From Sandaracinaceae bacterium (lineage in GTDB: Bacteria > Myxococcota_A > Polyangia > Polyangiales > Sandaracinaceae): 40,028 nt of DNA. Location: positions 1 to 40,028 of the forward strand of contig JAHBWG010000084.1 of assembly GCA_019637095.1 (NCBI GenBank), written 5' to 3'. This document shows positions 9,284 through 40,028 of the stretch, in pieces. Every line of letters begins with the position of its first letter. Within the stretch, counting starts at the first letter, position 1. The position numbers and the translations under genes were made by a program. The notes below the pieces were generated by a model, which did not search any database, was not told the origin of the DNA, and was given only the letters and a program-made list of their open reading frames with translations.

Positions 9284-9286
9284 CGC

Positions 9287-11020
9287 TCAGGAGTTGATGC
9301 TCGCGGTGATGCGGGACGGGAGCAGGCAGGTGTACGGCAGGCGCCGCGCGCGGTTCCTCGCCTCGATGATCGCCTCGGCGTCCGCGAGCTCGCGGCGGAA
9401 GCGCTCGAGCAGCGGCGCCACCCGCGGGTCCGTGAAGTGCCCGTCGGGCACCTCGCCGAGGAAGCTCACGTGGATCGAGTCGACGGAGTAGACCTGCGCG
9501 AGCTGCTCCCAGCCCAGGCCGCGCGGCGGCAGCATGTCGAGGAGCGTCGAGTCGTCCACGGGGACGCCGGGCGGCGGCATCGGGATGCGCTGGACGGCGG
9601 GCATGTTGGGCACGAACGCCATCCAGTCGAACCAGTCGTAGTTGATCGCCGCGTGGTAGCTCGACGCGCGGTGGATGATGCGCGCCGCGAGGTCCGCGAG
9701 GCCCGCGCGCGAGTCGAGCCGCACCCCGCCGACGAGGCGCGGCAGGCGCCCGCCGTCCGGCGACGCGATCTCGGCGACCATCGCGCGCAGCTCCACGTCG
9801 GCCGCGACGTCGGCGTCGCGCGGGTAGTAGAGCGCGAGGTAGCCCTCGACCCAGCGCCGCAGCGCGGCCCACACGGTGAGCTGGTCGTCGCGGAACGGGT
9901 GCTCGAGCACGGCGGCGTCGTCGACGCCGGCGGCCGCCGCGGCGAGCGCGGGATCGAGATCGTCGAAGCTCACCTCGCGGATCGACTCGCGCAGCACCGC
10001 GAGCGTCGCCTCGAGCGCGGGCGCGAGCACGCGATCTTGCGTCCCGTTCGGCGTCACGAGCTCCTTCTTCGAGTAGTCGTTCGCGCCGAGCGTGTAGCGG
10101 AAGTGCGGGCTCAGCAGCGCGAGCACGGGGTGGCGCGCCGAGAGCTGCCGCCGCGCCGCGAGGATGAACCGCTGCACGATCATGTGCGTGTAGCCGAAGT
10201 GGACGACGATGCCCTCGAGGTTCGCGTCCGCGACCTGCACGACGGTCTTCGCGAGGCGCCAGCGCGCGCCGTCGGCGGGCGTGTAGATCGGCTCGCGCGG
10301 GCCGGGCCGCTGCCCGCACTGGATCGCGACGGGCAAGAGCCCGCGATCCGGCGTCGCGCAGAAGAGCGCGAGCGGCGCCGCCATGTGCTTCTGCACCGCG
10401 TCCTTCTTCGCGTCGGGCGGGTAGACGCCGCAGGGGATCCCGTCGAAGCGCGCGTAGTCGGCGAGGAAGAGGCGCCCTTCTTCGCGCGCCGCGTCGAGGG
10501 TGAGCCCGGGCCCGAGCGCGGCCTCGAGGTGCGCGCCGGTGACCGGCAGCCGATCGTCGGCCGCGTCGAGCCGGCACAGCAGCGTGGGCACCGCGCCCGC
10601 GACGCGCTGCCACGCGAACGCCCAGTCCTCGCGCCACACGTCGATCGAGGCGGGCCGGCGGATCGCGCGGAACATGCCCTCGTACTCTTCGATCGAGCCC
10701 ACGCGGCCGGTGTCGCCCGCGTTCTCGAGCGCGGCGACGAGCCCGCGCATCGACGGCACCTCGTGCACCAGCGCGCCGCCGAGCTCGACGCCGAGCTCGA
10801 CCACGGACGCGCCGGCGCGGTTGGCCTTCAGCGCGGCCGTCGCCTTCACCGACTGCTCGATGTACGGCAAGTCGAATTGCTCGCTCTTCGGGAGCTCGCC
10901 GGTGAAGCAGAGGTCCTGGTAGGAGTAGTCGTAGGTGTAGGCCTCGCGGGCCGCCTCGAGCGTCCGGGCGCGGCCCTCGGCGTCCGGGTCGTTCGCCGGG
11001 GTGGTGGGCGGCGCGCTCAC
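9287..11020 (-). CDS. Lipoxygenase 1 (third gene of the operon)
   Basis: A 577-residue lipoxygenase: non-heme iron enzyme that adds O2 to polyunsaturated fatty acids. Metal ligands are visible as H274-x4-H279 (HFGYTH), H456 and N460 (YHAAINYDWFDW), in the order and spacing of plant and animal enzymes; WRLAKTVVQVAD and PHFRYTL are also family-typical. It lacks the N-terminal PLAT domain, as bacterial lipoxygenases do, and has no signal peptide. The chain ends SINS, so the C-terminal residue, whose carboxylate is the fifth protein ligand, is Ser instead of the usual Ile. Start chosen at GTG 11020, which overlaps the stop of lipoxygenase 2 as GTGA. The kinase-cyclase gene follows 3 nt after the stop. 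Confidence 0.88.
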   Translation of the reverse strand: MSAPPTTPANDPDAEGRARTLEAAREAYTYDYSYQDLCFTGELPKSEQFDLPYIEQSVKATAALKANRAGASVVELGVELGGALVHEVPSMRGLVAALENAGDTGRVGSIEEYEGMFRAIRRPASIDVWREDWAFAWQRVAGAVPTLLCRLDAADDRLPVTGAHLEAALGPGLTLDAAREEGRLFLADYARFDGIPCGVYPPDAKKDAVQKHMAAPLALFCATPDRGLLPVAIQCGQRPGPREPIYTPADGARWRLAKTVVQVADANLEGIVVHFGYTHMIVQRFILAARRQLSARHPVLALLSPHFRYTLGANDYSKKELVTPNGTQDRVLAPALEATLAVLRESIREVSFDDLDPALAAAAAGVDDAAVLEHPFRDDQLTVWAALRRWVEGYLALYYPRDADVAADVELRAMVAEIASPDGGRLPRLVGGVRLDSRAGLADLAARIIHRASSYHAAINYDWFDWMAFVPNMPAVQRIPMPPPGVPVDDSTLLDMLPPRGLGWEQLAQVYSVDSIHVSFLGEVPDGHFTDPRVAPLLERFRRELADAEAIIEARNRARRLPYTCLLPSRITASINS

Positions 11021-12735
11021 GAGTGGATGCTCGCGCGGCTGACCGAGGGGCGCAGCCACTCGTAGGGCGAGGGCCGCGTCGCGTTGCGCGCGACGATGCG
11101 CGCGTCCGCGGCGTCGAGCGCCTCGCGGAAGCGCGCCTCGAGCGGGCCCACCCGCGGGTCGTCGAACGTGCCCGGCGCGTAGGCGCCGAAGCGGTTCTCG
11201 TCGAGCCGCGTCTGCTCGTAGAAGAAGGCCCACTGGCTCATCGACAGATCCTCCGGCAGGTAGCTGGCGTGGCGATCGCCCTCGGTCGCCCCGGCCGCGG
11301 GCGGCGGCCCGAAGAGCGCCACCGGCATGCTCGTCGAGTCGCTCATCATCTCGTACTGCGAGTAGTTGCAGATGGTGTGGAGCGGCCCCGCCGACCAGAG
11401 CGCGAACGTCACGAGCTCGACGAGCGCGTCGCGATCCTCGACCTCGGGGATCGACGCGAGCCGGCCGCCCCAGTGGCCGCGCAGATCGCGGCAGAACGCG
11501 CGCAGCTCCTCGTCCTCGCGGACGTCCGCGTCGGCCGCGTAGTAGAGCCCGACGTAGTCGCCGGCGAACGCGTGGATCGCGTCCCACACGTCGAGCCCGT
11601 CGTCGCGGTACGGGCAGTGGCGGAGGGTCCTCGGATCGCCCAGCCCGCGGTCGCGCACGCGCCGCGGCGGCAGCGCGGCCGCGTAGTCGAAGCGCTGCAC
11701 GGCGGCTTGCACGATCCAGAGCGCTTGGCCGCGGCTCACCGAGAGCAGCGTCTCGAGGTCGCCGCCGGGCTTCATCAGGGTGTCGCGCACCTGCGCGTTG
11801 ATCGCGAGCGTGTACTCGGTGTGCGCCGCGAGCAGGCGCCGCAGCGGGTGCGCCGCGGCCAGCTCGCGCCGCGTCGCGAGCGCGAACGCCTCCATGAGGA
11901 AGTGGCAGTGGCCCAGGTGCCAGACGAGCGCCTGCTCGTGCAGATCCGCGGTCTGCGCCGACAGCTTGGCCATCGACCACGCGACGCCGTCCGCGGGCGT
12001 GAGCACCGCGCGCTCCGGCGCGGTGCGGATGGCGACCGGCACGAACGCGCCGCCCGGCGCGGTCGCGAACAGCGCCGCCGCCGGATCGAGCCGCTTCGCC
12101 TCGCCGTCGGGCGTCGCGCCGGTGTGCGCGCCGGCGAGCCAGCGCCAGTCGGCGACGAACAGCCGGCCCTCGCTCGCGGCGCGCGCGAGCGAGTCGCCCT
12201 CGCCCGCGGCCACCGCGTAGGCCGCCTCGTCGGCGGGGACCGCGTCGGGGAGCTCGCGGACCGCGCGGAGCTTCATCGGGTTGGCGCCGCCGAGGCGCTG
12301 CCACGCGAAGAGCTCGTCGTCGCGCGCGGGCTGCGCGTGCCGCGCCGCGACGAGCGGCGGCACGTCCTGTCCGAACCAGCGCAGCGCGGTCGCCGGATCG
12401 GCGCGGCGCCGCGCGTCGCGCTCCGTCGCGGCCTTCACCGAGCCGACGAGCCGCGAGAGCCACCCCTCGCTCGCCGGCGCCGCCGCGCGGGCCTCCTCGG
12501 CGTGCGCGGCGCGGTTTCGCAGGCTCACCGCGGCCTCGTGCGCCTTCATGCGCGCGATCACCGCGCCGAACTGCGCGAGGTAGCTGGCGGAGAAGGCGTC
12601 TGCGCGCGGCACCTCGGCGGCGGTCGCGACGCCCTCGGGCCGGTGCCAGGTGTAGCGGTACGTCGCGCGCGCGCGGGCGCGCTCGGCCTCGCGGTCGGCG
12701 GCGCGCGGATCGTTCTGCGGCAACAGCGTCGGCAC
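11017..12735 (-). CDS. Lipoxygenase 2 (second gene of the operon)
   Basis: A 572-residue paralogue of its two neighbours. Iron ligands: H273-x4-H278 (HLGHCH), H453 and N457 (PLHTICNYSQYE). The N-terminal quarter is Ala/Arg-rich and diverges most. The chain ends SIHS, so again the terminal residue is Ser rather than Ile. The segment after the third His (CNYSQYEMMSDSTSMP) departs from the family's NYxQxxWxxxxPN pattern more than in the other two copies, suggesting altered substrate binding (inference). Start is a GTG seven bases after the stop of lipoxygenase 3; I see no good Shine-Dalgarno sequence, so translation may depend on coupling. Confidence 0.85.
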   Translation of the reverse strand: MPTLLPQNDPRAADREAERARARATYRYTWHRPEGVATAAEVPRADAFSASYLAQFGAVIARMKAHEAAVSLRNRAAHAEEARAAAPASEGWLSRLVGSVKAATERDARRRADPATALRWFGQDVPPLVAARHAQPARDDELFAWQRLGGANPMKLRAVRELPDAVPADEAAYAVAAGEGDSLARAASEGRLFVADWRWLAGAHTGATPDGEAKRLDPAAALFATAPGGAFVPVAIRTAPERAVLTPADGVAWSMAKLSAQTADLHEQALVWHLGHCHFLMEAFALATRRELAAAHPLRRLLAAHTEYTLAINAQVRDTLMKPGGDLETLLSVSRGQALWIVQAAVQRFDYAAALPPRRVRDRGLGDPRTLRHCPYRDDGLDVWDAIHAFAGDYVGLYYAADADVREDEELRAFCRDLRGHWGGRLASIPEVEDRDALVELVTFALWSAGPLHTICNYSQYEMMSDSTSMPVALFGPPPAAGATEGDRHASYLPEDLSMSQWAFFYEQTRLDENRFGAYAPGTFDDPRVGPLEARFREALDAADARIVARNATRPSPYEWLRPSVSRASIHS

Positions 12736-12742
12736 GGCGCGC

Positions 12743-14506
12743 TCAGATGTGGATGCTCGCCGCGATGAGCGACGGGCGCAGGAACGGGTAGGAGAGCAAG
12801 CGCCCGCCGTCGCGCGCGCCGATGAGGAGCTCGAGGTCCTTCAAGTGTTTCGCGAACGCGTCGGCGAGCGCCTTGGCCGGCCGGTGCTTCCAGTGGAGCA
12901 GCGGGTAGTCGCCGAGGAAATTCCGCCGGATGTTCGAGAGCTGGTAGGCGAGGGTGAAGTGCTCGGTCGCGACGTCGACGGGCGGCAACAGATCCACGAG
13001 CGAGCGCTCCTCGTCCGGCGTCGCGGCGGTCGGCGCGGGCGCGTAGCCGGCGCCGGGGAGGTTCGGGATCATGCCCATGTAAGGGAACTGCGCGTAGTTG
13101 AGCGCGGAGTGCTGCGCGCTCGCGGTCCAGATCATCACCGACAGCAGCTCCGCGAGCTGCGCGCGCCCGCGCGCGACGGGCACGCCGCGCAGGCGCCCGC
13201 CGTCCTCGCCGCCGAGCTCGGCGAGGAACGCCGCGAGCTCCGTGTCGGCCGCGACCGCCGCGTCGTCGGGGTAGTAGAGCTCGACGTAGCCGCCGACGAA
13301 CTTCGTGATCGCGCCCCACACGTCGAGCGCGTCGTCGCGGTAGGGGAACACCGGCAGCGCGCCCGTGTCGGCCACGCGCCGCTTCGCGAGCTGCGTGGGC
13401 GGCGCGCCCTCGTCGAGCCGGAACTCCCCGAGCCCGAGCGCGGTGAGCGTGACGCTCGTCTCGAGCGTGCCGCCGAGCACGTGGTCCACGCCGCCGCCCG
13501 GCGCGATGAGGCTGTTCTTCGCGGAGTCGTTGATCTGGAGCGTCGTCTCGAAGTGCGGCGTGAGCAGCGCGTAGAGCGGGTGGGGCGGCGGGAGGTTGCG
13601 CATCGCCGCGAGGATCACCGCCTCCATCACCGCGTGCGCCTTGCCGAGGTGCTGCCGCGTCTCGTGATCGTTGCCGTCCGAGATCTGCACGATCGTGCGC
13701 GCCATCCGCCAGCGCGCGCCGTCCCGCGGCGTCCAGATCGGGAACGCGTCGCCCGGCTCCTGGCCGCACTGGATCGCGACGGGGAGCAGCGCCGCGGCGC
13801 CGCGCTTGGGCCGCGCGAAGAGCGCGATCGGCGCGTAGAGGTACTTCGGCGCGTCGCCGCTCTTGCCGCTCGGGAGCCCGTCCATGTGGCGGTAGTCGGC
13901 GACGAAGAGGCGGCCCTCCGCGAGCGCCGCCTCGAGCGAGTCGCCCTCGGCCATCGCGCCCAACGCGGCGGCGAAGTGCGCCTCGGTCACCGGCATGCGC
14001 TCGGGCCGCGCGTCGAGGCCCTCGAGCATCATCGGGTTCGCGCCGGCGAGCCGTTGCCACGCGAAGAGCTCGTCCTGCGCCGCGTCCAAGCCCAGGAACG
14101 CGCTCATCAGCGCGGGCTCCTCGAGGATCCCGAAGAAGCGCCGGAAGTCCTCCACGGACTCGAACCGCGTGCGCCTCATGCGCGCCGCGATGCTCTGGCC
14201 GAGCGAGAAGAGCTCGTGCCGCAGGTGCTCGGGCGAGAAGCCCTCGCGCTCCTCTCTGTGCTGCTGCTCCGAGAACTCCTCGAGCCCGCCGAGATCCGCG
14301 GCGACGTGGTTCGCCTTCAGCGTCGCCTCGATCTTCAGGTAGTCGGCGACGTACGGGATGGAATAGCCCTCGCCCTTGGGCACCTCGTCGGCCCACGCCG
14401 CGCCGGGCGGGTACGTGTACGAGTAGCGGTAGCGCGCGCGGGCGGCGTCGAGCGCGGCGCGGCGGGCCGGGCCGTCCGTCGCGTCCTGCGGCAGCGTCGG
14501 GGTCAA
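12743..14506 (-). CDS. Lipoxygenase 3 (first gene of the operon)
   Basis: A 587-residue lipoxygenase with the most canonical active site of the three: H286-x4-H291 (HLGKAH), H466 and N470 (AQHSALNYAQF), and a C-terminal Ile (ends SIHI), as in classical enzymes. Also typical are WRMARTIVQISD and TPHFETTLQIND. No PLAT domain and no signal peptide. The start is TTG 14506, supported by a strong ggagg four bases upstream; the ATGs inside would remove family-conserved sequence. As first gene it should be the best translated. Myxobacterial lipoxygenases acting on linoleic and arachidonic acid are known, so production of hydroperoxy fatty acids is likely, but the position oxidised cannot be read from sequence. 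Confidence 0.9.
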   Translation of the reverse strand: MTPTLPQDATDGPARRAALDAARARYRYSYTYPPGAAWADEVPKGEGYSIPYVADYLKIEATLKANHVAADLGGLEEFSEQQHREEREGFSPEHLRHELFSLGQSIAARMRRTRFESVEDFRRFFGILEEPALMSAFLGLDAAQDELFAWQRLAGANPMMLEGLDARPERMPVTEAHFAAALGAMAEGDSLEAALAEGRLFVADYRHMDGLPSGKSGDAPKYLYAPIALFARPKRGAAALLPVAIQCGQEPGDAFPIWTPRDGARWRMARTIVQISDGNDHETRQHLGKAHAVMEAVILAAMRNLPPPHPLYALLTPHFETTLQINDSAKNSLIAPGGGVDHVLGGTLETSVTLTALGLGEFRLDEGAPPTQLAKRRVADTGALPVFPYRDDALDVWGAITKFVGGYVELYYPDDAAVAADTELAAFLAELGGEDGGRLRGVPVARGRAQLAELLSVMIWTASAQHSALNYAQFPYMGMIPNLPGAGYAPAPTAATPDEERSLVDLLPPVDVATEHFTLAYQLSNIRRNFLGDYPLLHWKHRPAKALADAFAKHLKDLELLIGARDGGRLLSYPFLRPSLIAASIHI

Positions 14507-32397: not shown

Positions 32398-35034
32398 TCA
32401 CCGGACGGGCTTCGCCCGGCGGAGCTGCGCGAGCAGCTCGGCCTTCTTCCTGAGGTCGATCGTGAATCGGGACTCGAGCCCGGTCTGGCGCGCAAGATCG
32501 ATCGCGCGCAGGGCTTCGCGCGATCGTTCGGCCGGTGTGTCCGTGCTCGGCCCTGCCGGCCCTCGGCGCCGGGCCTTCGCAGCTTCCACACAGTGCCCCG
32601 CCCACCAGTACGCGTACTCGTCCTCGAGGCGGGTGGAGAACGTGATGGGGTCGTCGTCGTTCACGCTGAGCCGGAGGTCGTCGGCGTCGTCGCCCGGCGG
32701 CGGATCCTGCCGGCTCGGATGGCGACCCAAGAGCCCGAGGTCACCGATGAGCAGATTGCTGCTTGGGTTCGTCTCGACCACGAGGCGTCGAGCCGCGATC
32801 TCGCGGCGCACGCAGCGCTGGAGAGACGCCGCGGCGTCTTCGTCGTCGCGCGCCCACCGAACCCAGAGCGGGCGGCGTGCACGCCGGGCCATCGGCTCCT
32901 CGCCGAGCAGCCGATGGATCGACTTCCACTTTGGCTCGGCGGGGATGCACCGCGTGAGCCTCGGGTATCCCAAACGGCCGACGAGACCACGGCTGTGGAG
33001 CGCCTCGTAGACGTCGACGAGCAGCTCCGTTCCTGGCAGGTCGATCTCCTCCCACGCGATCGCTCGCCAGATCTCGCGGACCTCCTGCCGGACTCGCAAG
33101 ACCCTCGTGTTGGGGGTCTCGAGAAGGCCGCGACGGACCAGTGCCAGCTCGAACGAGAGGTCCCAGAGGCGCTCCTCGGCGGGCTGGAGCACGCAACCGT
33201 CCTCGTCGCAGGAGACGCCCCGCGGCATGCCGAGCGCGAGGGCGTGGCCGATCCTGTCGCCCTCCCGCAGGATCGGCTGGTGTCCCCAAGCCGACGCGTG
33301 AGCGCCCGACCTCCCGGTGAAGCGCCTCGGCTCACCCAGCAAGAGCTCGCCGAGGCGGCGGACTCCGTCGTGCGGCGTGAACCACTCCTCCCCGGCGTGC
33401 GCGGTGGCGCGAAACCCGCGGTCCAGCCCCACCTGCGCGAGCGAGGGGTCACACCGTCGCACGTACGTCGCCGCCGCCTCGAAGATCTCGCGCGCCTGGG
33501 CGTAGAGCGGCCTCACCGCCCACGTCGGGACCCCGAGCTCGTTGCTGGCGACGTCCGCGCCTCGCAGGACGAGCACGGCCCAGGGCTCGGCCCTCGACAC
33601 GCGCTCGAGAACCTCCAGATGCGCTTGTTGGTCCCGAACCCAGTCCCCGTAGCGGACCAGCGTGCGCCGGTTGTCGGAAGGAAGATCGCGCCCGGGCTCC
33701 TTGATCCAATGCAGCGAGACGCCGACCTCGACCTGCGGAGCGTGCTCGTAGGCGTCAGCCAGCAACCCGCGGTACGCGGAGCGGGAGCGCTTGAAGCCCT
33801 TCCTGCCCTCCAGGGCCACGAGCCGCAGCCCGGTCGAGCGCTCGAGGTCCAGTGCCTCGCTCAGCTCCGATCGCTTCGGGTCGGCGAGAAGCTCGATGCG
33901 CTGATAGTATCGAGCGAACCACCCGAGTCCGGGCGTCCCGGGCTCGAGGACGAGCCATTCGAACGTCGCCGTGCGGAGTCGCTGATACTGCCAGAAAAGG
34001 CGGCGCCAGACCCCCCGGAGCTCGCGCATCCCGTAGAACGTCAGCAGAAGCTCGCCCCGATCCTGCCGGGCTCGATCGGGAACGTCGATCCTCCCGCGGC
34101 CGGTGGCGGCGAAGAGGTCGGTCAGGCCCTTTCGTCTGCGGACCTCGTGCGCGAGGCTCGTGAGTGCGCTCCTCGGGCCAGACTCCAAGGCTCCGCGCGC
34201 CAGCGCTCCCACCCATATGGGCAACGTACGTTTCCAGTCGCGTCCACTTGCTGGCGCGATGCGGCGCGCGAGCGACTCGGCAGCGCTCGACACCGCGTCG
34301 TCATCGTCCGAGAGCGCATGGCCGGCCGTCAGTCGCCACGCGAGCAGGACGCGCGCCACGCAGGCTTGGCCGAGCGCCGTCGCGAACGCAGCGCCCGACG
34401 CGAACGGAGGTGAATGTCGATCGAGCTTCTCGAGCTCCGAACGTTGCATCAGCGACGCGGCTCGATCCATCGCCTCGCACCAGAGCTGCGTGAAGCTCAC
34501 GGCGGCGCCGAGGTGCAGGTGCGTCTCGGCGACGCCGCGTCGAAGCACCTCGCGGAGCGCCGCTGGAGCCAGGGTGACCCACGGCCTCGACGGTGGCACC
34601 TCCGCGTAGGCCGCGTGAAGGAGATCGGGCGGCACGGCGAGGCTCGCCCACCGCCATCGCCGGACCGCCGCCGCGTGGGCGTTCGAGAGCGTCTCCTCGG
34701 CTGGCGGGAGGACCTCGTGGGCCCAGTCCTTCAGGTATTGGTACAGAGAGCCATCGCGGGCCTGCTCGCCGCTCCACGCGTTCGTGCGGATGAGCTGGAG
34801 ATGCTCGAGGGAGAGGCCGCGAGAGCATCGTTGAAGCTCCTCGTCGAGCTCCCCGGCCAGATGGTCGGCGCGCGGGGTGACCGGGGGCGGGCCGCGTGGC
34901 ACCTGGGACGGCGGCAGCGAGGCGGCCTTGCTGAACGGTGCGATGGTGTCGAGCGCCCAGCGGCGCGCGAGCTTCGAGCGCAGGGGCCATGCCTTCGCCA
35001 GCGCGTGGAGCCACTCCGTCGGGACGTCCGCCAT
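32398..35034 (-). CDS. rdrB: RdrB: divergent adenosine deaminase of a RADAR system
   Basis: An 878-residue deaminase, far longer than housekeeping adenosine deaminase (about 350) and in the size range of RdrB. Deaminase motifs are all present: HLH (172-174, Zn), HAGE (546-549), GH (596-597), and NDDDP (792-796) matching the family NTDDP, with D794 as probable metal ligand and D795 as catalytic partner; NPSSN (756-760) also fits. A large insertion separates HLH from HAGE. Known RdrB forms big hollow shells and, on phage infection, deaminates adenosine (reported on RNA, and on ATP/dATP), with RdrA required. Start is ATG 35034, 17 bases after the rdrA stop. RdrB usually follows RdrA, as here. 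Confidence 0.85.
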   Translation of the reverse strand: MADVPTEWLHALAKAWPLRSKLARRWALDTIAPFSKAASLPPSQVPRGPPPVTPRADHLAGELDEELQRCSRGLSLEHLQLIRTNAWSGEQARDGSLYQYLKDWAHEVLPPAEETLSNAHAAAVRRWRWASLAVPPDLLHAAYAEVPPSRPWVTLAPAALREVLRRGVAETHLHLGAAVSFTQLWCEAMDRAASLMQRSELEKLDRHSPPFASGAAFATALGQACVARVLLAWRLTAGHALSDDDDAVSSAAESLARRIAPASGRDWKRTLPIWVGALARGALESGPRSALTSLAHEVRRRKGLTDLFAATGRGRIDVPDRARQDRGELLLTFYGMRELRGVWRRLFWQYQRLRTATFEWLVLEPGTPGLGWFARYYQRIELLADPKRSELSEALDLERSTGLRLVALEGRKGFKRSRSAYRGLLADAYEHAPQVEVGVSLHWIKEPGRDLPSDNRRTLVRYGDWVRDQQAHLEVLERVSRAEPWAVLVLRGADVASNELGVPTWAVRPLYAQAREIFEAAATYVRRCDPSLAQVGLDRGFRATAHAGEEWFTPHDGVRRLGELLLGEPRRFTGRSGAHASAWGHQPILREGDRIGHALALGMPRGVSCDEDGCVLQPAEERLWDLSFELALVRRGLLETPNTRVLRVRQEVREIWRAIAWEEIDLPGTELLVDVYEALHSRGLVGRLGYPRLTRCIPAEPKWKSIHRLLGEEPMARRARRPLWVRWARDDEDAAASLQRCVRREIAARRLVVETNPSSNLLIGDLGLLGRHPSRQDPPPGDDADDLRLSVNDDDPITFSTRLEDEYAYWWAGHCVEAAKARRRGPAGPSTDTPAERSREALRAIDLARQTGLESRFTIDLRKKAELLAQLRRAKPVR

Positions 35035-35051
35035 CGCGCGCTCGAGGTCGC

Positions 35052-38000
35052 TCAGTCCTCGAGGAGTCTCCTCAGCTCCTCGTCCACGTCGAAGGGGGGA
35101 GGCTCCGGCGACCGAGTGCTCCGATCGAAGACCTCGGCGAGGGCTCCCGCGAAGTCCTCCGATACCCCCGAGAGCTCGGGCCGGCTGAAGAACGCGCGCG
35201 CCACGCTCGCCCATTGACCGATGAACTGGCGGTGGCCGGCCGGGGCGCGATGCTGGTTGAAGAGATTCGACAACATCCCGCCGGCGAGCTGACCGAGCTT
35301 GGACGGGGTGTCTCGGTAGGGTCGAAGTCGCGGCAGTTCGTCTCGGCCTGCCTCGCTGTCCACGGTCACGATCCATGCCAGCGCGAACCCATCGATCCAA
35401 GCCTGCGTCGATCGCGGCTCCCTCAGCGTGCGCCAAATCCCCAACCATCGCTCCCATCGGTAAAGCTCGGGGTAGGCGGGGAGGAGCCAACGCGAGAAGC
35501 GCGCCGCGTTCACCGTACGCACGCTCAGGCCCGGCCAGGGAACGACCCGCCCCGTCAGAGCGTGGCGATCCACCGCGCAACGCGTGACGGAGCCCGCGGC
35601 GACATGCGCGTCCCAGAGGAGGCGGAGCGCGTAGTCCTGCAACGGGGTCAGCTCCTCGTCGGACGAGTCCCCCAGGACTTGGACTTCGACCCTTCGACGA
35701 AGCCGTACGGTGGTCGCCTCGACCTCGAAGGCTTGGGCCGCGCTGAACGGTCCACCCACCAACCTGGCCACCGGCGCCATCACCTGGTCGTCGAGACCTC
35801 GTGGCGGGGGCGGTCCACCGAGAGCGCCGTAGACCTGCTCCATCACATCGGGTCCGACGACGCCAGCGTCCTCGCGAGCGTCGGCGCTTTCAACCGCCTC
35901 CCGCAGCTCGCGGAGCGCAGGCGGGGAGAAGCTCTCGAAGGTTCGGCGACGCTGAGGGGAGGCGGTCGCGAGCCTCGCCAGCGACTCCGTACGCGCTGAA
36001 CATCTACCGAGCATCTCGAGCAAGGCTTCGCGAATCGTGCCGGGTTCGTACTCGGATGACCAGCGATGCTCGGCGTACGTTCGGTCCATGATGCGAGCGA
36101 AGCTCTCGACCTGGCCCTGCGAGGAGTCCCCGTGGACGCGCCTCGTCGCGAGCAGCCAACGCCGCCGTCGTGCTTGTGCGTCGCTCGGGATCCACTCGTC
36201 CGCCTGGAGGCGACCCAGCAGGTCATTTGCGCTCGCGGGGTCGAGGCCGGCCTCGGGGAGGGCCAGGAGAAACAGAGCCTCGCGACACCACTCGGCGACC
36301 GCGCCCTTGGGAACCTCCGCGAGCTGGGCGATGAGGTCGCTCCAGGCTCTTGCGCCTCCAACTTGGACGTGGTGCTGGCTCCCCGTCTCGACGGCGAGCA
36401 GCAGGTCCGCATACCTTCGCGCCAGAAAGGCGGGTGACTCGACCTCGGCGGACTCCGCGATCCCGCGCCAACGGTGGAAGAACTGCAAGTAGGTCTCGAA
36501 GTCGCGCCATCGCGGAAGTGGCCAAGCCGCCCGAGAGATCTCGCCCTCGACATCGTGGTCGCAGAACACGACGTAAGCACGCTGGACGTCCGCCAGGAGG
36601 ATGCGCGCGTGGTCCTCGTGGAGGTCACCGTGGTTCGCCAGCAGCAGACCGTAGGCGTGTGCGAGCCGCTCCGGGAGGGGCGGTTCCGCGTGCGCCACCA
36701 GAGGAGCTGGGTGGACGGAGGCGGTCTCCACGCCGCTCTCGGTTGCCGCGCGATCGAGGTCGACGGGCTCGCCGTCGTCCGCGAGGTCCGCGCTCCCCTC
36801 CGCTACCCCCGGCTCGAGCTGGTCGAAGAGATTGCCGACGGTCGTGCGGCGGCGTACCTCCGGTGAGGGGGGCGGCCGATAGCGTACCGGGCTCAGGTCC
36901 GTCAGCTCGGCGTGGAGGGATGGAGACCACTGCACCCAGAGAGCTCCCGGTTGCCCAGGGCGGGCGCGGGCACGACCATCGAAGGTGACCCGCAAGCGGA
37001 CCACCCCGGGTCGGGCGGTGAAGCCACCCGTGGTCGGTCGCACGGACTTGCGCAGGATCCGCCGCGTCGACTCGGTGACCGTGGAATGCTCGAGCGCCGT
37101 GTTCCAGACGTGCTTCACCCAGAGCGCTGGCGAGCGCGACGGCAGCCGCTCGAGCTCCGCTTTCAAGGAAACCGCTTCGCGCAGGTTCTCGGGCAGGCCC
37201 TGCGCGAGCAGGTGGTCCGCGAGCCCGAGGCGTCGCCGGAGTGCATCGTACCCGCTCTCGTCGTCCCCCGCGGCGCGGGGTAGGAGGAGCTCGAGGCGCT
37301 CCTCTGGCGTCAGCGGAGGCAAGGTGGCGCGGTCAGTGACCGGGAGGTGCTTGTCGAGGTACTGGCGCGCGAGGGTGTCGGCGAGCTCGGAGACTTCCGG
37401 CACGCGCGCGGTCAAGAGCGCGGGCGGTGAGCGGTGTCCGAGCGATCCGCGAAAGGCATCCCGCAGCACGGCGTCGAACAGCTCGAGGTGGCCGGTGAGC
37501 ACGTACGCGACGCGAGGGTGGCGCAGCATCCGCAGCATGTCGAGGAGTTCGAGGCAACGCCGCGGCTGCATGTCGGCGTCGTCGATCGGGATGACGAGCA
37601 GGGGTCTCTTGCGCCTGGGATCGAGCTCGCGCAGCGCTTCGACCGTCGCGTTCACGAGATCATGGAAGCTCGCTTCGACGTCCGCGCGGCGCGCTCCGGC
37701 CTCTTCGAGCTCCTCGACGAAGGCGTTCGCGTCCGCGGCGCGGCCACTCCCGGGGCGCGCGAAGCCTAACGCCGCATCGCGGGCGAAGCGCCGCCAGGCG
37801 GTTCGCGCCGCGTGCTCGTGGCCCAGCCAAGACGCCGGGGGCTCACGCTCCGCGGCGGGGGCGGAGCTCGACCGCGCTTCCAGGTGCTCCACGATGCCCA
37901 GGAGGGCGGAGGGAATCTCGAGCACGAGGCTGCGGCCCTCGGGGAACGGTCGCAGGTCGAGGATCCGGAGCGGGTACACCGCGACGTCGGCGAGCCTCCC

Positions 38001-38378
38001 GGCGCGTGCGACTCGCGCGCTGGTGGGGTGGGGCGGCGGAGCGATGGGAGGCGCGTTGATTGCGTGGCGGAGCTCGTCGAGCAGGGCGATCAGCGCCGTC
38101 GTCTTGCCCGACCCGCGCGCGCCGTCGATCAGGAAGCACTGGTTGTAGCGGATGGCATCCGGGACGAACAGGAAGGACCGCAGCTCCGTAGCGGGGTCGT
38201 GGCGCTCGCGCACCGTTGCCCCTGCCCGGGGCAGGCTCGCCGAGGGATCGCTCGACGCCAGCCAGACGAGGTGCCCGACGAGCTTCGCGACGACGTCCTC
38301 CTGCGATTGCGTGAGCGGATCTTCCGCCGTCGGCAGTGCCGTGTCGACGTGCGGGCGGTAGGCTTGGTCGTCACTCAT
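35052..38378 (-). CDS. rdrA: RdrA: large P-loop ATPase of a RADAR system
   Basis: An 1108-residue cytoplasmic ATPase. Walker A is GARGSGKTT (86-94) and Walker B-like LLVIPIDDAD (260-269), with a sensor-like YVLTGHLELF segment near 292-301. After residue 400 the sequence is helical and lacks familiar domains, which fits RdrA. Known RdrA assembles as a ring and associates with RdrB shells to trigger deamination during phage infection. No signal peptide or membrane segment. This is the first gene of the operon. GC is lower than in the lipoxygenase genes (65% in line 36061-36120), suggesting horizontal transfer. The identification rests on the pair of genes rather than on this protein alone. Confidence 0.82.
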   Translation of the reverse strand: MSDDQAYRPHVDTALPTAEDPLTQSQEDVVAKLVGHLVWLASSDPSASLPRAGATVRERHDPATELRSFLFVPDAIRYNQCFLIDGARGSGKTTALIALLDELRHAINAPPIAPPPHPTSARVARAGRLADVAVYPLRILDLRPFPEGRSLVLEIPSALLGIVEHLEARSSSAPAAEREPPASWLGHEHAARTAWRRFARDAALGFARPGSGRAADANAFVEELEEAGARRADVEASFHDLVNATVEALRELDPRRKRPLLVIPIDDADMQPRRCLELLDMLRMLRHPRVAYVLTGHLELFDAVLRDAFRGSLGHRSPPALLTARVPEVSELADTLARQYLDKHLPVTDRATLPPLTPEERLELLLPRAAGDDESGYDALRRRLGLADHLLAQGLPENLREAVSLKAELERLPSRSPALWVKHVWNTALEHSTVTESTRRILRKSVRPTTGGFTARPGVVRLRVTFDGRARARPGQPGALWVQWSPSLHAELTDLSPVRYRPPPSPEVRRRTTVGNLFDQLEPGVAEGSADLADDGEPVDLDRAATESGVETASVHPAPLVAHAEPPLPERLAHAYGLLLANHGDLHEDHARILLADVQRAYVVFCDHDVEGEISRAAWPLPRWRDFETYLQFFHRWRGIAESAEVESPAFLARRYADLLLAVETGSQHHVQVGGARAWSDLIAQLAEVPKGAVAEWCREALFLLALPEAGLDPASANDLLGRLQADEWIPSDAQARRRRWLLATRRVHGDSSQGQVESFARIMDRTYAEHRWSSEYEPGTIREALLEMLGRCSARTESLARLATASPQRRRTFESFSPPALRELREAVESADAREDAGVVGPDVMEQVYGALGGPPPPRGLDDQVMAPVARLVGGPFSAAQAFEVEATTVRLRRRVEVQVLGDSSDEELTPLQDYALRLLWDAHVAAGSVTRCAVDRHALTGRVVPWPGLSVRTVNAARFSRWLLPAYPELYRWERWLGIWRTLREPRSTQAWIDGFALAWIVTVDSEAGRDELPRLRPYRDTPSKLGQLAGGMLSNLFNQHRAPAGHRQFIGQWASVARAFFSRPELSGVSEDFAGALAEVFDRSTRSPEPPPFDVDEELRRLLED

Positions 38379-38664
38379 CGACCGCGCTCCGGGGTCCAGG
38401 CGTTGGCGTTCGCGAGTCGACCGTCGGGCTCGCGCCGGTCGTCGGCTGCACCCGCGCCGTTCGTGAGCTCGTGAGTTGGGCCGCGGACATCGTTGGAGCC
38501 GAGCATGCGACTCCTCGTAGAGTACCAGCGCAGCGCAGCGGTGCGCTGCGAAAGTTCGAGTCGGCGGAAGCGCACCGCACCCTCGCGCGTGGAGCCTCGG
38601 AGTCGGCGGTCGACCGAGCGTCTTTGCTCATGTCGAGCTTGGTGATTCCGCGCGAAGTCTTTAC
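38379..38664. other. Intergenic region upstream of rdrA
   Basis: The divergent spacer between rdrA (leftward) and the terminal gene (rightward); it should hold the rdrA promoter, which I could not locate. It contains a 7-bp perfect hairpin (cgcagcg, loop gtg, cgctgcg; 38534-38550) without a T-run. This could be an operator or simply GC-rich chance. No gene here. Confidence 0.35.
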
Positions 38665-38696
38665 CTTGACATCTGTTCAGGCGTCTGCCACGTTAT
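38665..38696 (+). promoter_or_regulatory. Promoter overlapping a LexA-box-like site
   Basis: A perfect -35 box TTGACA (38666-38671) is followed by a weak -10 candidate cgttat (38691-38696, 19-base spacer). The stretch CTTGACATCTGTTCAGG (38665-38681) agrees at 15 of 17 positions with the Myxococcus xanthus LexA motif CTRHAMRYBYGTTCAGS as I remember it, including the full GTTCAGG end. A repressor bound here would cover the -35 box. The driven gene starts at 38719. Confidence 0.45.
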
Positions 38697-38718
38697 CCCT
38701 GGTTCTGTTGGGGGCTCG

Positions 38719-40028
38719 ATGCTCGAACCGCTCTCTCTCGACGACGATGAGCTACGCGCGATGGACGAGGAGCTCGCGCGCCTCGCGCGGTGCAACGTAC
38801 GTGACCGGCTCGCGCTGGGCGTGGCGCTCCATCGGCTCGGCAAGGGGTTTCAGGAGCTCGGGTTCCGCTCCTTCGCGATGTACGTTCGCGAGCGGGTGTC
38901 GCAGGGTGCGCGCTGGTGCGGTGACACGCGCGCGCTCGCGCGGCGGCTCGAGGAGCGGCCCGTCATCCGAGCGGCGCTGGTCTCGGGGCGCATCGGCTGG
39001 TCGATGGCCGAGATGCTGGCGCGCCACGTCGGCCCGGACGACGAGGCGGAGCTGCTCGCGGCGGTCGAGGGTGCGACCGTGCGTGAGGTGCGCGAGGCGC
39101 TGCGCACGGCAGGAGGCGAGGTCGCGGCCGAGGAAGACGAGGCGTACTGCACCGTCGATCTCCCGGTGACGGCTTCGGAGCTGCTCGCGCTGGAAGCCAC
39201 GAAGGCGGCCATCGAGCACGTCAACGGCGGGGTGGTCGAGCCGGGGCACTGGCTGGAGTGCCTGGTCTTCGAGGGCGCCTCGACGCTCTTCGCGAAGCGG
39301 CCGGACCTCGCGTCGCAGTACGAGCGGTTCGCGCCCACGGCGCGGCGGGAGCGAGGGCTCGTCGAGGAGCCGGTGCCGGCGCGGCGCGCGGTGACGGACG
39401 AAGCGTGCGTCGAGGAGCCCGTCGAGGCCGACGACCCGGTGGCGCTCGACGCGGTCGTGCGCGACGTGGGCGCGCGGCTCGCGAGCCGTGACCTCTGGCT
39501 CGGCGCGCTGCTCTCGCGCTTCATGCTCGCGCGCGGATGGGTGGCCCTCGGCTACGCGTCCGAGCAGTCGTACTTCGACGAGCGGCTCGGGCTCGCGCGC
39601 TCGACCGCCCGCGGGCGGATCACGCTCGCGCGGCGGGTGGAGCACTTGGAGCGGCTCGGCGACGCGGTGCGCGACGGCGAGGTGGGCTATGAGCAAGCGT
39701 CGCTGATCGCGCGCGTGGCCGGGCCCGACACGATCGACGCGTGGGTCACTCGCGCCAAGGCGCGGACCTACGTGCACCTCGCCGAGGAGGTCCGCGCCGT
39801 CGAGCTGCTCGCGCGGGTCGAAGGGGCGCCCGCGCGGCACCTCGCGCCGCCCGACGACGACGAGCTCGAGGCCGTCATCGCCTTCGAGCGCGCCGTGCTG
39901 AGCGGCGAGCTGCTCGCGAACGCGGCCCGCGAGGCGGGCGCGGACTCGGAGGTGCGCAATGACGCGGTCCAGATGTCCGGGAGTGCCGCCGAGGACGCCG
40001 GCGCAGTCCAGATGTCCGTAGGTCTCCC
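38719..40028 (+). CDS. DUF222/HNH-type family protein, 5' part (runs off the window)
   Basis: An ATG at 38719 opens a frame that stays open through the window end, at least 436 codons. The protein is helical with two similar halves: RDRLALGVALHRLGKGFQEL with FRSFAMYVRERV (about 27-59), and RDLWLGALLSRFMLARGW with YASEQSYFDERL (about 258-291). The second half is followed by RSTARGRITLARRVEHL, a helix-turn-helix-like segment. I recall this layout from myxobacterial proteins annotated as HNH endonucleases, which carry the nuclease motif at the C-terminus, beyond this window. No HNH motif is visible here. Transcribed divergently from rdrA behind a LexA-box-like promoter. Confidence 0.7.
   Translation, partial: MLEPLSLDDDELRAMDEELARLARCNVRDRLALGVALHRLGKGFQELGFRSFAMYVRERVSQGARWCGDTRALARRLEERPVIRAALVSGRIGWSMAEMLARHVGPDDEAELLAAVEGATVREVREALRTAGGEVAAEEDEAYCTVDLPVTASELLALEATKAAIEHVNGGVVEPGHWLECLVFEGASTLFAKRPDLASQYERFAPTARRERGLVEEPVPARRAVTDEACVEEPVEADDPVALDAVVRDVGARLASRDLWLGALLSRFMLARGWVALGYASEQSYFDERLGLARSTARGRITLARRVEHLERLGDAVRDGEVGYEQASLIARVAGPDTIDAWVTRAKARTYVHLAEEVRAVELLARVEGAPARHLAPPDDDELEAVIAFERAVLSGELLANAAREAGADSEVRNDAVQMSGSAAEDAGAVQMSVGL
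39967..40018 (+). repeat. In-frame repeat at the window end
   Basis: gtccagatgtccg occurs at 39967-39979 and again 39 bases later at 40006-40018, in the same frame, so the peptide AVQMS recurs every 13 residues. Because the window ends here, the number of copies is unknown. It looks like a repeat-built linker ahead of the missing C-terminal domain. Confidence 0.5.

What the first reader, a model, noticed from the sequence alone, without database searches (positions are those of the whole stretch)
32398..38378. RADAR (rdrA-rdrB) anti-phage locus in a probable myxobacterium
Seen: a 1108-residue ATPase with Walker A at 86-94, then 17 bases later an 878-residue deaminase with HLH, HAGE, GH and NDDDP motifs. 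Known: RADAR is an RdrA ATPase plus an oversized adenosine deaminase RdrB that halts phage infection by A-to-I chemistry. Inference: this is a complete two-gene RADAR operon, longer in RdrA than the enterobacterial versions I know, and without a recognisable accessory gene beside it. It may represent a divergent lineage.
Basis: partly seen in the sequence, partly recalled or inferred. Interest (0 to 1): 0.8.

Follow-up and report, generated by a model that had tools for sequence, protein, structure and literature searches.

The report
Divergent RADAR anti-phage gene pair
A myxobacterium carries a complete but very divergent copy of RADAR, a two-gene system known from other bacteria to stop viruses by converting ATP to ITP, and it belongs to a large, little-described branch of that system found across many bacterial phyla.

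Summary
On the minus strand lie an intact 1108-aa AAA+ ATPase (35052-38378) and, 17 bases on, an intact 878-aa deaminase (32398-35034), with every motif at the positions named. The RADAR interpretation is supported by several tests. A profile of relatives built without the window finds both proteins. A profile made only from RdrB of the branch holding the studied types finds the deaminase at E=2e-52. The predicted RdrB model matches E. coli RdrB at Z 29.4 over 671 residues, against Z about 22 over about 300 for ordinary adenosine deaminases. The ATPase domain matches RdrA at Z 23, against 13 for the next family. In relatives, rdrA lies directly upstream of rdrB in 59 of 62 testable loci. The deaminase falls in a 72-member branch (Myxococcota, Planctomycetota, Methylococcales and others), split with full support from the branch of the E. 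coli and Citrobacter types. Peculiarities: a 19-residue insertion between two active-site segments, His instead of Asp at sensor 1, lower GC3 than neighbours. NCBIfam cut-offs are missed, but an E. coli-type control misses them too. Defence, ATP-to-ITP chemistry and shell assembly are inferred, not shown. A divergent new member of a known system.

The parts
35052..38378 (-). rdrA: 1108-aa AAA+ ATPase, first gene of the pair
   Evidence: NCBIfam RdrA 57 bits and PADLOC RdrA 2e-8 on the single sequence; family profile to PDB RdrA 8fnt E 1.6e-19; leave-window-out profile 380 bits
38097..38123 (-). RdrA Walker A GARGSGKTT (residues 86-94)
   Evidence: K92 in 61 of 63 rows of the window branch and 21 of 21 rows of the other branch
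37572..37583 (-). RdrA Walker B DDAD (residues 266-269)
   Evidence: D266 invariant apart from gapped rows, D269 in 59 of 63 rows of its branch
37488..37490 (-). RdrA sensor-1 position, His297 where E. coli RdrA has D253
   Evidence: D in 39 and H in 5 of 63 rows of the window branch; D in 19 of 21 of the other
37179..37181 (-). RdrA sensor-2 arginine R400
   Evidence: R in 58 of 63 and 19 of 21 rows; probable equivalent of E. coli R377 (PMC9994260)
32398..35034 (-). rdrB: 878-aa ATP/adenosine-type deaminase, second gene of the pair, 17 bases after rdrA
   Evidence: family profile to E. coli RdrB 8fnw E 3e-61; fold Z 29.4 over 671 aa
34513..34521 (-). RdrB zinc ligands H172 and H174 (HLH)
   Evidence: invariant in all 71 aligned rows of its branch and 20 of 21 of the other; equal to E. 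coli H152/H154
33388..33399 (-). RdrB HAGE: zinc ligand H546 and catalytic E549
   Evidence: H546 and E549 invariant in 92 of 92 rows; equal to E. coli H498/E501
33283..33339 (-). insertion of about 19 residues (about 566-584), peculiar to this RdrB, between HAGE and RIGH
   Evidence: HxGE to R-GH spacing 48 here, 29 in 61 of 71 rows of its branch and 18 of 21 of the other
33244..33255 (-). RdrB RIGH with zinc ligand H597
   Evidence: R594 and H597 invariant; H597 equal to E. coli H530
32647..32661 (-). RdrB NDDDP with active-site D794
   Evidence: D794 invariant in 92 of 92 rows

Best explanation
This is a complete, probably horizontally acquired RADAR operon of a divergent branch. After phage infection, RdrA, a ring-forming AAA+ ATPase whose fast-evolving C-terminal part probably senses the phage, docks on a hollow shell of RdrB. 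RdrB then deaminates ATP and dATP to ITP and dITP, which poisons the nucleotide pool and stops phage replication. Shown here: both intact genes, their order, homology of both proteins to RdrA and RdrB, conserved catalytic residues, and the RdrB fold beyond the deaminase core. Inferred from the E. coli and Citrobacter systems: ring and shell assembly, triphosphate specificity, activation by phage and protection of the cell.
For: Profiles: relatives without the window find RdrB (455 bits) and RdrA (380 bits). Profiles from the studied-type branch alone find P0002 at E 1.7e-52 over residues 123-871 and P0001 at E 4.4e-19. The family profile matches E. coli RdrB 8fnw at E 3e-61 and RdrA 8fnt at E 1.6e-19. 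Fold: RdrB model pLDDT 77.6 and pTM 0.82; 8fnv_A Z 29.4 over 671 aa against Cad1/ADA Z about 22 over about 300-320 aa. RdrA AAA+ domain: 8hr8 Z 23.3 over 310 aa, S. suis RdrA Z 18.1, next family BrxC Z 13.0. Zinc tetrad, catalytic Glu and active-site Asp conserved; Walker A/B and sensor 2 conserved. rdrA directly upstream of rdrB in 59 of 62 testable loci of the branch and 21 of 22 of the other. GC3 0.84 (rdrA) and 0.86 (rdrB) against 0.92-0.98 in neighbouring genes, and patchy presence in the family.
Against: Single-sequence scores are far below the NCBIfam cut-offs (57/600 and 27/800 bits). However, a Pantoea RdrB 92% identical to E. coli RdrB also scores only 115/800. RdrA's C-terminal two thirds shows no detectable similarity to the structurally known RdrA, and its model is poor there. 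The E. coli crown residues K150/E151/R162 are not conserved in this branch. Sensor 1 is His. The 19-residue insertion next to the active site could alter substrate or docking.
Confidence: 0.9

Rival explanations
1. The pair is a RADAR relative whose deaminase has shifted substrate (AMP, adenosine, a modified nucleotide or RNA), so that it is defence-related but does not make ITP.
For: Only 16-20% identity to the studied-type RdrB proteins, a unique 19-residue insertion between the catalytic HAGE and the last zinc His, and a long tree branch of 1.74 changes per column.
Against: All active-site residues conserved, and E409/R411, N756, S759 and N760 shared with both branches. The RdrA partner is retained, as in known RADAR.
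Confidence: 0.12
2. The pair is not defence: a housekeeping or secondary-metabolic nucleotide deaminase with an ATPase partner.
For: No other defence gene was recognised among the neighbours tested, and the genome could not be phage-tested.
Against: Present in only 19 of 379 Myxococcota genomes and in scattered lineages, with atypical codon use. Several genomes carry two or three divergent copies, one rdrB (in G353) is split by a transposase gene, and some copies are on plasmids. The fold is RdrB and not Add.
Confidence: 0.04
3. A decayed or inactive RADAR remnant.
For: Sensor-1 Asp replaced by His, and a long branch.
Against: Both frames open over 1108 and 878 codons, all catalytic residues retained, and His at sensor 1 also in four other members of the branch.
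Confidence: 0.04

Closest known systems
RADAR of E. coli P0304799.3 (RdrA 8fnt, RdrB 8fnv/8fnw; PMC9994260)
   Same: Two genes, rdrA then rdrB; AAA+ domain; RdrB fold including the extensions beyond the deaminase core; zinc tetrad of four His with catalytic Glu and active-site Asp.
   Different: About 19% identity to the Pantoea homologue in RdrB; RdrA longer (1108 against about 947 aa) with a C-terminal part that shows no detectable similarity; crown residues K150/E151/R162 not kept; 19-residue insertion between HAGE and RIGH; sensor-1 His.
RADAR of the Citrobacter/Aliivibrio type that NCBIfam NF041743/NF041744 describe
   Same: Same gene order and catalytic residues.
   Different: 16-17% identity in RdrB; does not reach the equivalog cut-offs.
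Uncharacterised RADAR branch in Myxococcota, Planctomycetota, Methylococcales and others (this work, 72 rows)
   Same: 25-34% identity to the window RdrB, rdrA adjacent, no recurring third gene.
   Different: Most members lack the insertion (spacing 29 residues); nearest row L091 of Sandaracinaceae MED-G138.
Cad1, the CARF-fused ATP deaminase of type III CRISPR (PMC11645235)
   Same: Adenosine deaminase-fold domain; ATP-to-ITP chemistry in the known member.
   Different: Cad1 aligns only from model residue 155 on, about 320 residues; no CARF domain found here; the partner is an AAA+ protein, not a CRISPR system.

Membership tests
RADAR | RdrA: AAA+ ATPase of the RdrA kind with Walker A/B and sensor 2 | tested here: met
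   Fold Z 23.3 over 310 aa to 8hr8, next family 13.0; motifs conserved; profile E 4.4e-19 from the studied-type branch
RADAR | RdrB: adenosine deaminase-fold active site with four zinc-binding His and catalytic Glu | tested here: met
   H172, H174, H546, E549, H597 and D794 present and conserved in the family
RADAR | RdrB larger than a plain deaminase, with the extra parts (insertions 1-3) of the RdrB fold | tested here: met
   671 aligned residues over model 13-860 to 8fnv_A, Z 29.4, against about 300-320 residues for plain deaminases and Cad1
RADAR | rdrA and rdrB in tandem | tested here: met
   17-base gap; 59 of 62 testable loci in the branch
RADAR | Interface residues shown to matter in E. 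coli (RdrB E595-597, RdrA crown K150/E151/R162) | tested here: inconclusive
   RdrB has EE near the aligned place (residues AWEEID) but most of the branch does not; the crown residues vary even inside the studied-type branch
RADAR | RdrB shell, RdrA ring and their supramolecular complex | not testable with these tools
   No multimer prediction or electron microscopy here
RADAR | ATP/dATP to ITP/dITP conversion and phage protection | not testable with these tools
   Needs biochemistry and phage assays
NCBIfam equivalogs NF041743 (RdrA) and NF041744 (RdrB) | Curated score cut-offs 600 and 800 bits | tested here: not met
   57 and 27 bits. Control: Pantoea RdrB, 92% identical to E. coli RdrB, also fails with 115 bits, so the cut-offs bound one subtype and not RADAR
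Housekeeping adenosine deaminase (PF00962/Add) | Gathering score of PF00962 and length of about 330-370 aa | tested here: not met
   14 against 27 bits, 878 aa
Cad1 (CARF-ADA) | N-terminal CARF domain fused to the deaminase | tested here: not met
   No CARF family hit in Pfam or PADLOC for P0002; model residues from 13 on align to RdrB, while Cad1 aligns only from residue 155

The most novel reading that the evidence does not exclude
The window belongs to a second major type of RADAR, in which the same ATPase-deaminase machine uses a different sensing C-terminus. In the window's own sublineage a loop inserted beside the active site has remodelled substrate choice or RdrA docking.
Probability: 0.25. 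Interest if true: 0.55.

Novelty: new member of a known kind. Interest (0 to 1): 0.35.

Why it matters
The RADAR systems studied closely so far (E. coli, Citrobacter, S. suis) appear, from their nearest relatives here, to lie on one side of the family tree. The branch described here (268 relatives, counting both sides, in one scan of genome contigs) includes bacteria that can be grown, such as Myxococcus, Pyxidicoccus and Archangium, and annotation by strict equivalog cut-offs overlooks it. It gives natural variants with which to separate what RADAR needs (catalytic residues, AAA+ core) from what varies (sensor domain, docking surface), which bears on the open question of how RADAR recognises phage.

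Tried and rejected
The search for related loci with the single window RdrB found nothing in genome contigs or viral contigs; an alignment was needed. phmmer of the single proteins against the PDB missed the RdrA and RdrB entries; only profiles found them. RdrA has no match in phage genomes. The idea that low NCBIfam scores argue against RADAR was rejected by the Pantoea control. The idea that rdrA length marks a new type was rejected by the length range in the branch. A recurring third gene (SLATT or other) was looked for by clustering neighbours and not found in this branch; a SLATT gene does follow rdrB in Aureibacter. The RdrA C-terminus could not be modelled (pLDDT mostly under 50), so nothing is claimed about its fold. 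A careful bootstrap tree was not run: the tree has SH-aLRT support only, and the window is a long branch in it. The paper's Table S1, which lists 270 RADAR systems in 7 phyla, could not be read, so whether members of this branch are already in it is unknown.

Full report
What is there. The two genes are real, intact and placed as described. rdrA is 35052-38378, minus strand, 1108 aa. rdrB is 32398-35034, minus strand, 878 aa, starting 17 bases after the rdrA stop. The longer ORF listed for rdrB (1060 aa, TTG) overlaps rdrA and is not needed. The genome (9.25 Mb, 197 contigs) holds one such rdrB.

Single-sequence tests are weak but point one way. PADLOC gives RdrA 2e-8 and RdrB 2.5e-5. NCBIfam gives RdrA 57 bits (E 1e-15) and RdrB 27 bits (E 1e-6), far below cut-offs of 600 and 800. 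Pfam gives only subthreshold AAA and A_deaminase. The cut-offs mean little here: a Pantoea RdrB whose matched part is 92% identical to E. coli RdrB scores 115 of 800, and of the ten proteins tried only the Aliivibrio and Salmonella types pass.

Family tests are strong. Relatives were collected from the phylum and aligned (A1 for RdrB, A2 for RdrA). The A1 profile matches E. coli RdrB (8fnw) at E 3e-61, and plain deaminases reach at best 3e-9. A2 matches RdrA (8fnt) at E 1.6e-19. To avoid circularity, profiles without the window were built: 455 bits for RdrB and 380 for RdrA. Profiles built only from the branch that holds the studied types gave E 1.7e-52 (residues 123-871 of RdrB) and 4.4e-19 (AAA+ part of RdrA).

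Structure. The RdrB model (pLDDT 77.6, pTM 0.82) matches E. coli RdrB first in Foldseek (E 1e-22). VIA-align gives Z 29.4, rmsd 3.9, 671 residues, model 13-860. Plain deaminases and Cad1 give Z about 22 over about 300-320 residues. The parts of RdrB outside the deaminase core are therefore matched as well. The RdrA model is good only in the AAA+ part. There it matches E. coli-type RdrA (8hr8, Z 23.3 over 310 aa) and S. suis RdrA (Z 18.1), then BrxC (Z 13.0).

Catalytic residues. RdrB H172, H174, H546, E549, H597 and D794 correspond to the zinc tetrad, catalytic Glu and active-site Asp; the first five are described for E. coli RdrB in PMC9994260, the Asp follows from the adenosine deaminase family. 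They are invariant or nearly so in 92 aligned rows. RdrA Walker A K92, Walker B D266 and sensor-2 R400 are conserved. The sensor-1 position is His297 instead of the usual Asp, which is also seen in four other members of the branch.

Operon. In the branch of the window, 59 of 62 rdrB with room upstream have rdrA adjacent on the same strand, mostly with gaps under 60 bases or short overlaps. Two of the remaining three also hold rdrA close by, one with a larger gap (L114) and one in an overlapping frame (L089); the third (L059) has an RdrA-like ORF next to rdrB on the opposite strand. No third gene recurs. No PADLOC defence gene was convincing among the window's tested neighbours.

Phylogeny. A scan of GTDB-species contigs with A1 found 268 relatives, 80 fetched. 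In the tree of 94 RdrB the window lies in a branch of 72 rows (Myxococcota, Planctomycetota, Acidobacteriota, Pseudomonadota including many Methylococcales, Actinomycetota and others). That branch is split with SH-aLRT 100 from 22 rows that hold the Pantoea/E. coli, Rhizobium, Aliivibrio/Salmonella and Clostridia types. The window pairs with Sandaracinaceae MED-G138 (97), at 30% identity. It is a long branch, so its exact place inside the larger branch is unsure. Identity to the other branch is 16-20%, to its own 25-34%. Among 379 Myxococcota genomes 19 hold an RdrB at E 1e-30, about 5%. The published figure over all prokaryotes is under 1%, by other criteria (PMC9994260).

Peculiarities of this copy. 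The spacing between HAGE and the RIGH zinc motif is 48 residues. It is 29 in 61 of 71 members of the branch and 18 of 21 of the other, and 35 in one other row of the branch. The extra 19 residues (about 566-584) fall in a low-confidence stretch of the model (residues 572-579 under pLDDT 50). Their role is unknown; effects on substrate entry or RdrA docking are possible and untested.

Origin. GC3 is 0.84 (rdrA) and 0.86 (rdrB) against 0.92-0.98 in the neighbouring genes measured. Presence is patchy within the family. Both suggest acquisition by horizontal transfer. The host is a member of the family Sandaracinaceae: its family code is shared with genome G381, whose 26465-base contig with the same rdrA/rdrB pair is SHBB01000049.1, Sandaracinaceae bacterium MED-G138. 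This rests on the match of contig length, gene lengths and profile scores.

How it most likely works. By homology: phage infection is sensed by RdrA, probably through its variable C-terminal part, RdrA docks on the RdrB shell, and ATP/dATP become ITP/dITP (PMC9994260, for E. coli RADAR). Shown here are genes, homology, residues and fold. Assembly, substrate and protection are inferred. The branch is a large and little-studied part of RADAR, but the window itself is a new member of a known kind.

Noticed in passing
window 38661-40028: The gene divergent from rdrA (38719 to the contig end) belongs to a dispersed repeat of this genome: a 92% identical copy on contig C140 (L159 5965-7337) whose complete protein ends in an HNH-like motif, plus shorter pieces on C155, C15 and C73. 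The similarity begins 58 bases before the gene.
   Followed up: partly
L052 5081-10879 (genome G353): An rdrB of this branch is split into two pieces by a stretch that holds an ISXO2-like transposase (379 aa, named by eye); rdrA beside it is intact.
   Followed up: partly
L152 8571-10172 (Rhizobium leguminosarum plasmid pRLN3): An adenylosuccinate synthetase gene lies 0.9 kb downstream of rdrB; the enzyme consumes IMP, so a link with inosine nucleotides made by RADAR is conceivable.
   Followed up: no
L074, L096, L107 (Myxococcus sp. RHSTA-1-4); L073, L087 (Archangium lansinium); L062-L064 (G394): Single myxobacterial genomes carry two or three RADAR pairs from different sub-branches.
   Followed up: partly
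L070 8905-9612 (Aureibacter plasmid pAT1): A SLATT-domain gene directly follows rdrB; SLATT genes have been described beside RADAR (from memory).
   Followed up: no
L059 3941-12258 (G025): rdrB and an RdrA-like ORF of 1885 aa lie on opposite strands, 26 bases apart, instead of in tandem.
   Followed up: no
L089 5015-10618: A single 1867-aa open frame contains rdrB and overlaps the rdrA-like frame; probably a chance open frame in GC-rich DNA, not checked.
   Followed up: no
window 9284-14074: Diverged internal repeats (66-76% identity) around a lipoxygenase gene at 12743-14506 suggest a duplicated or decayed gene.
   Followed up: no
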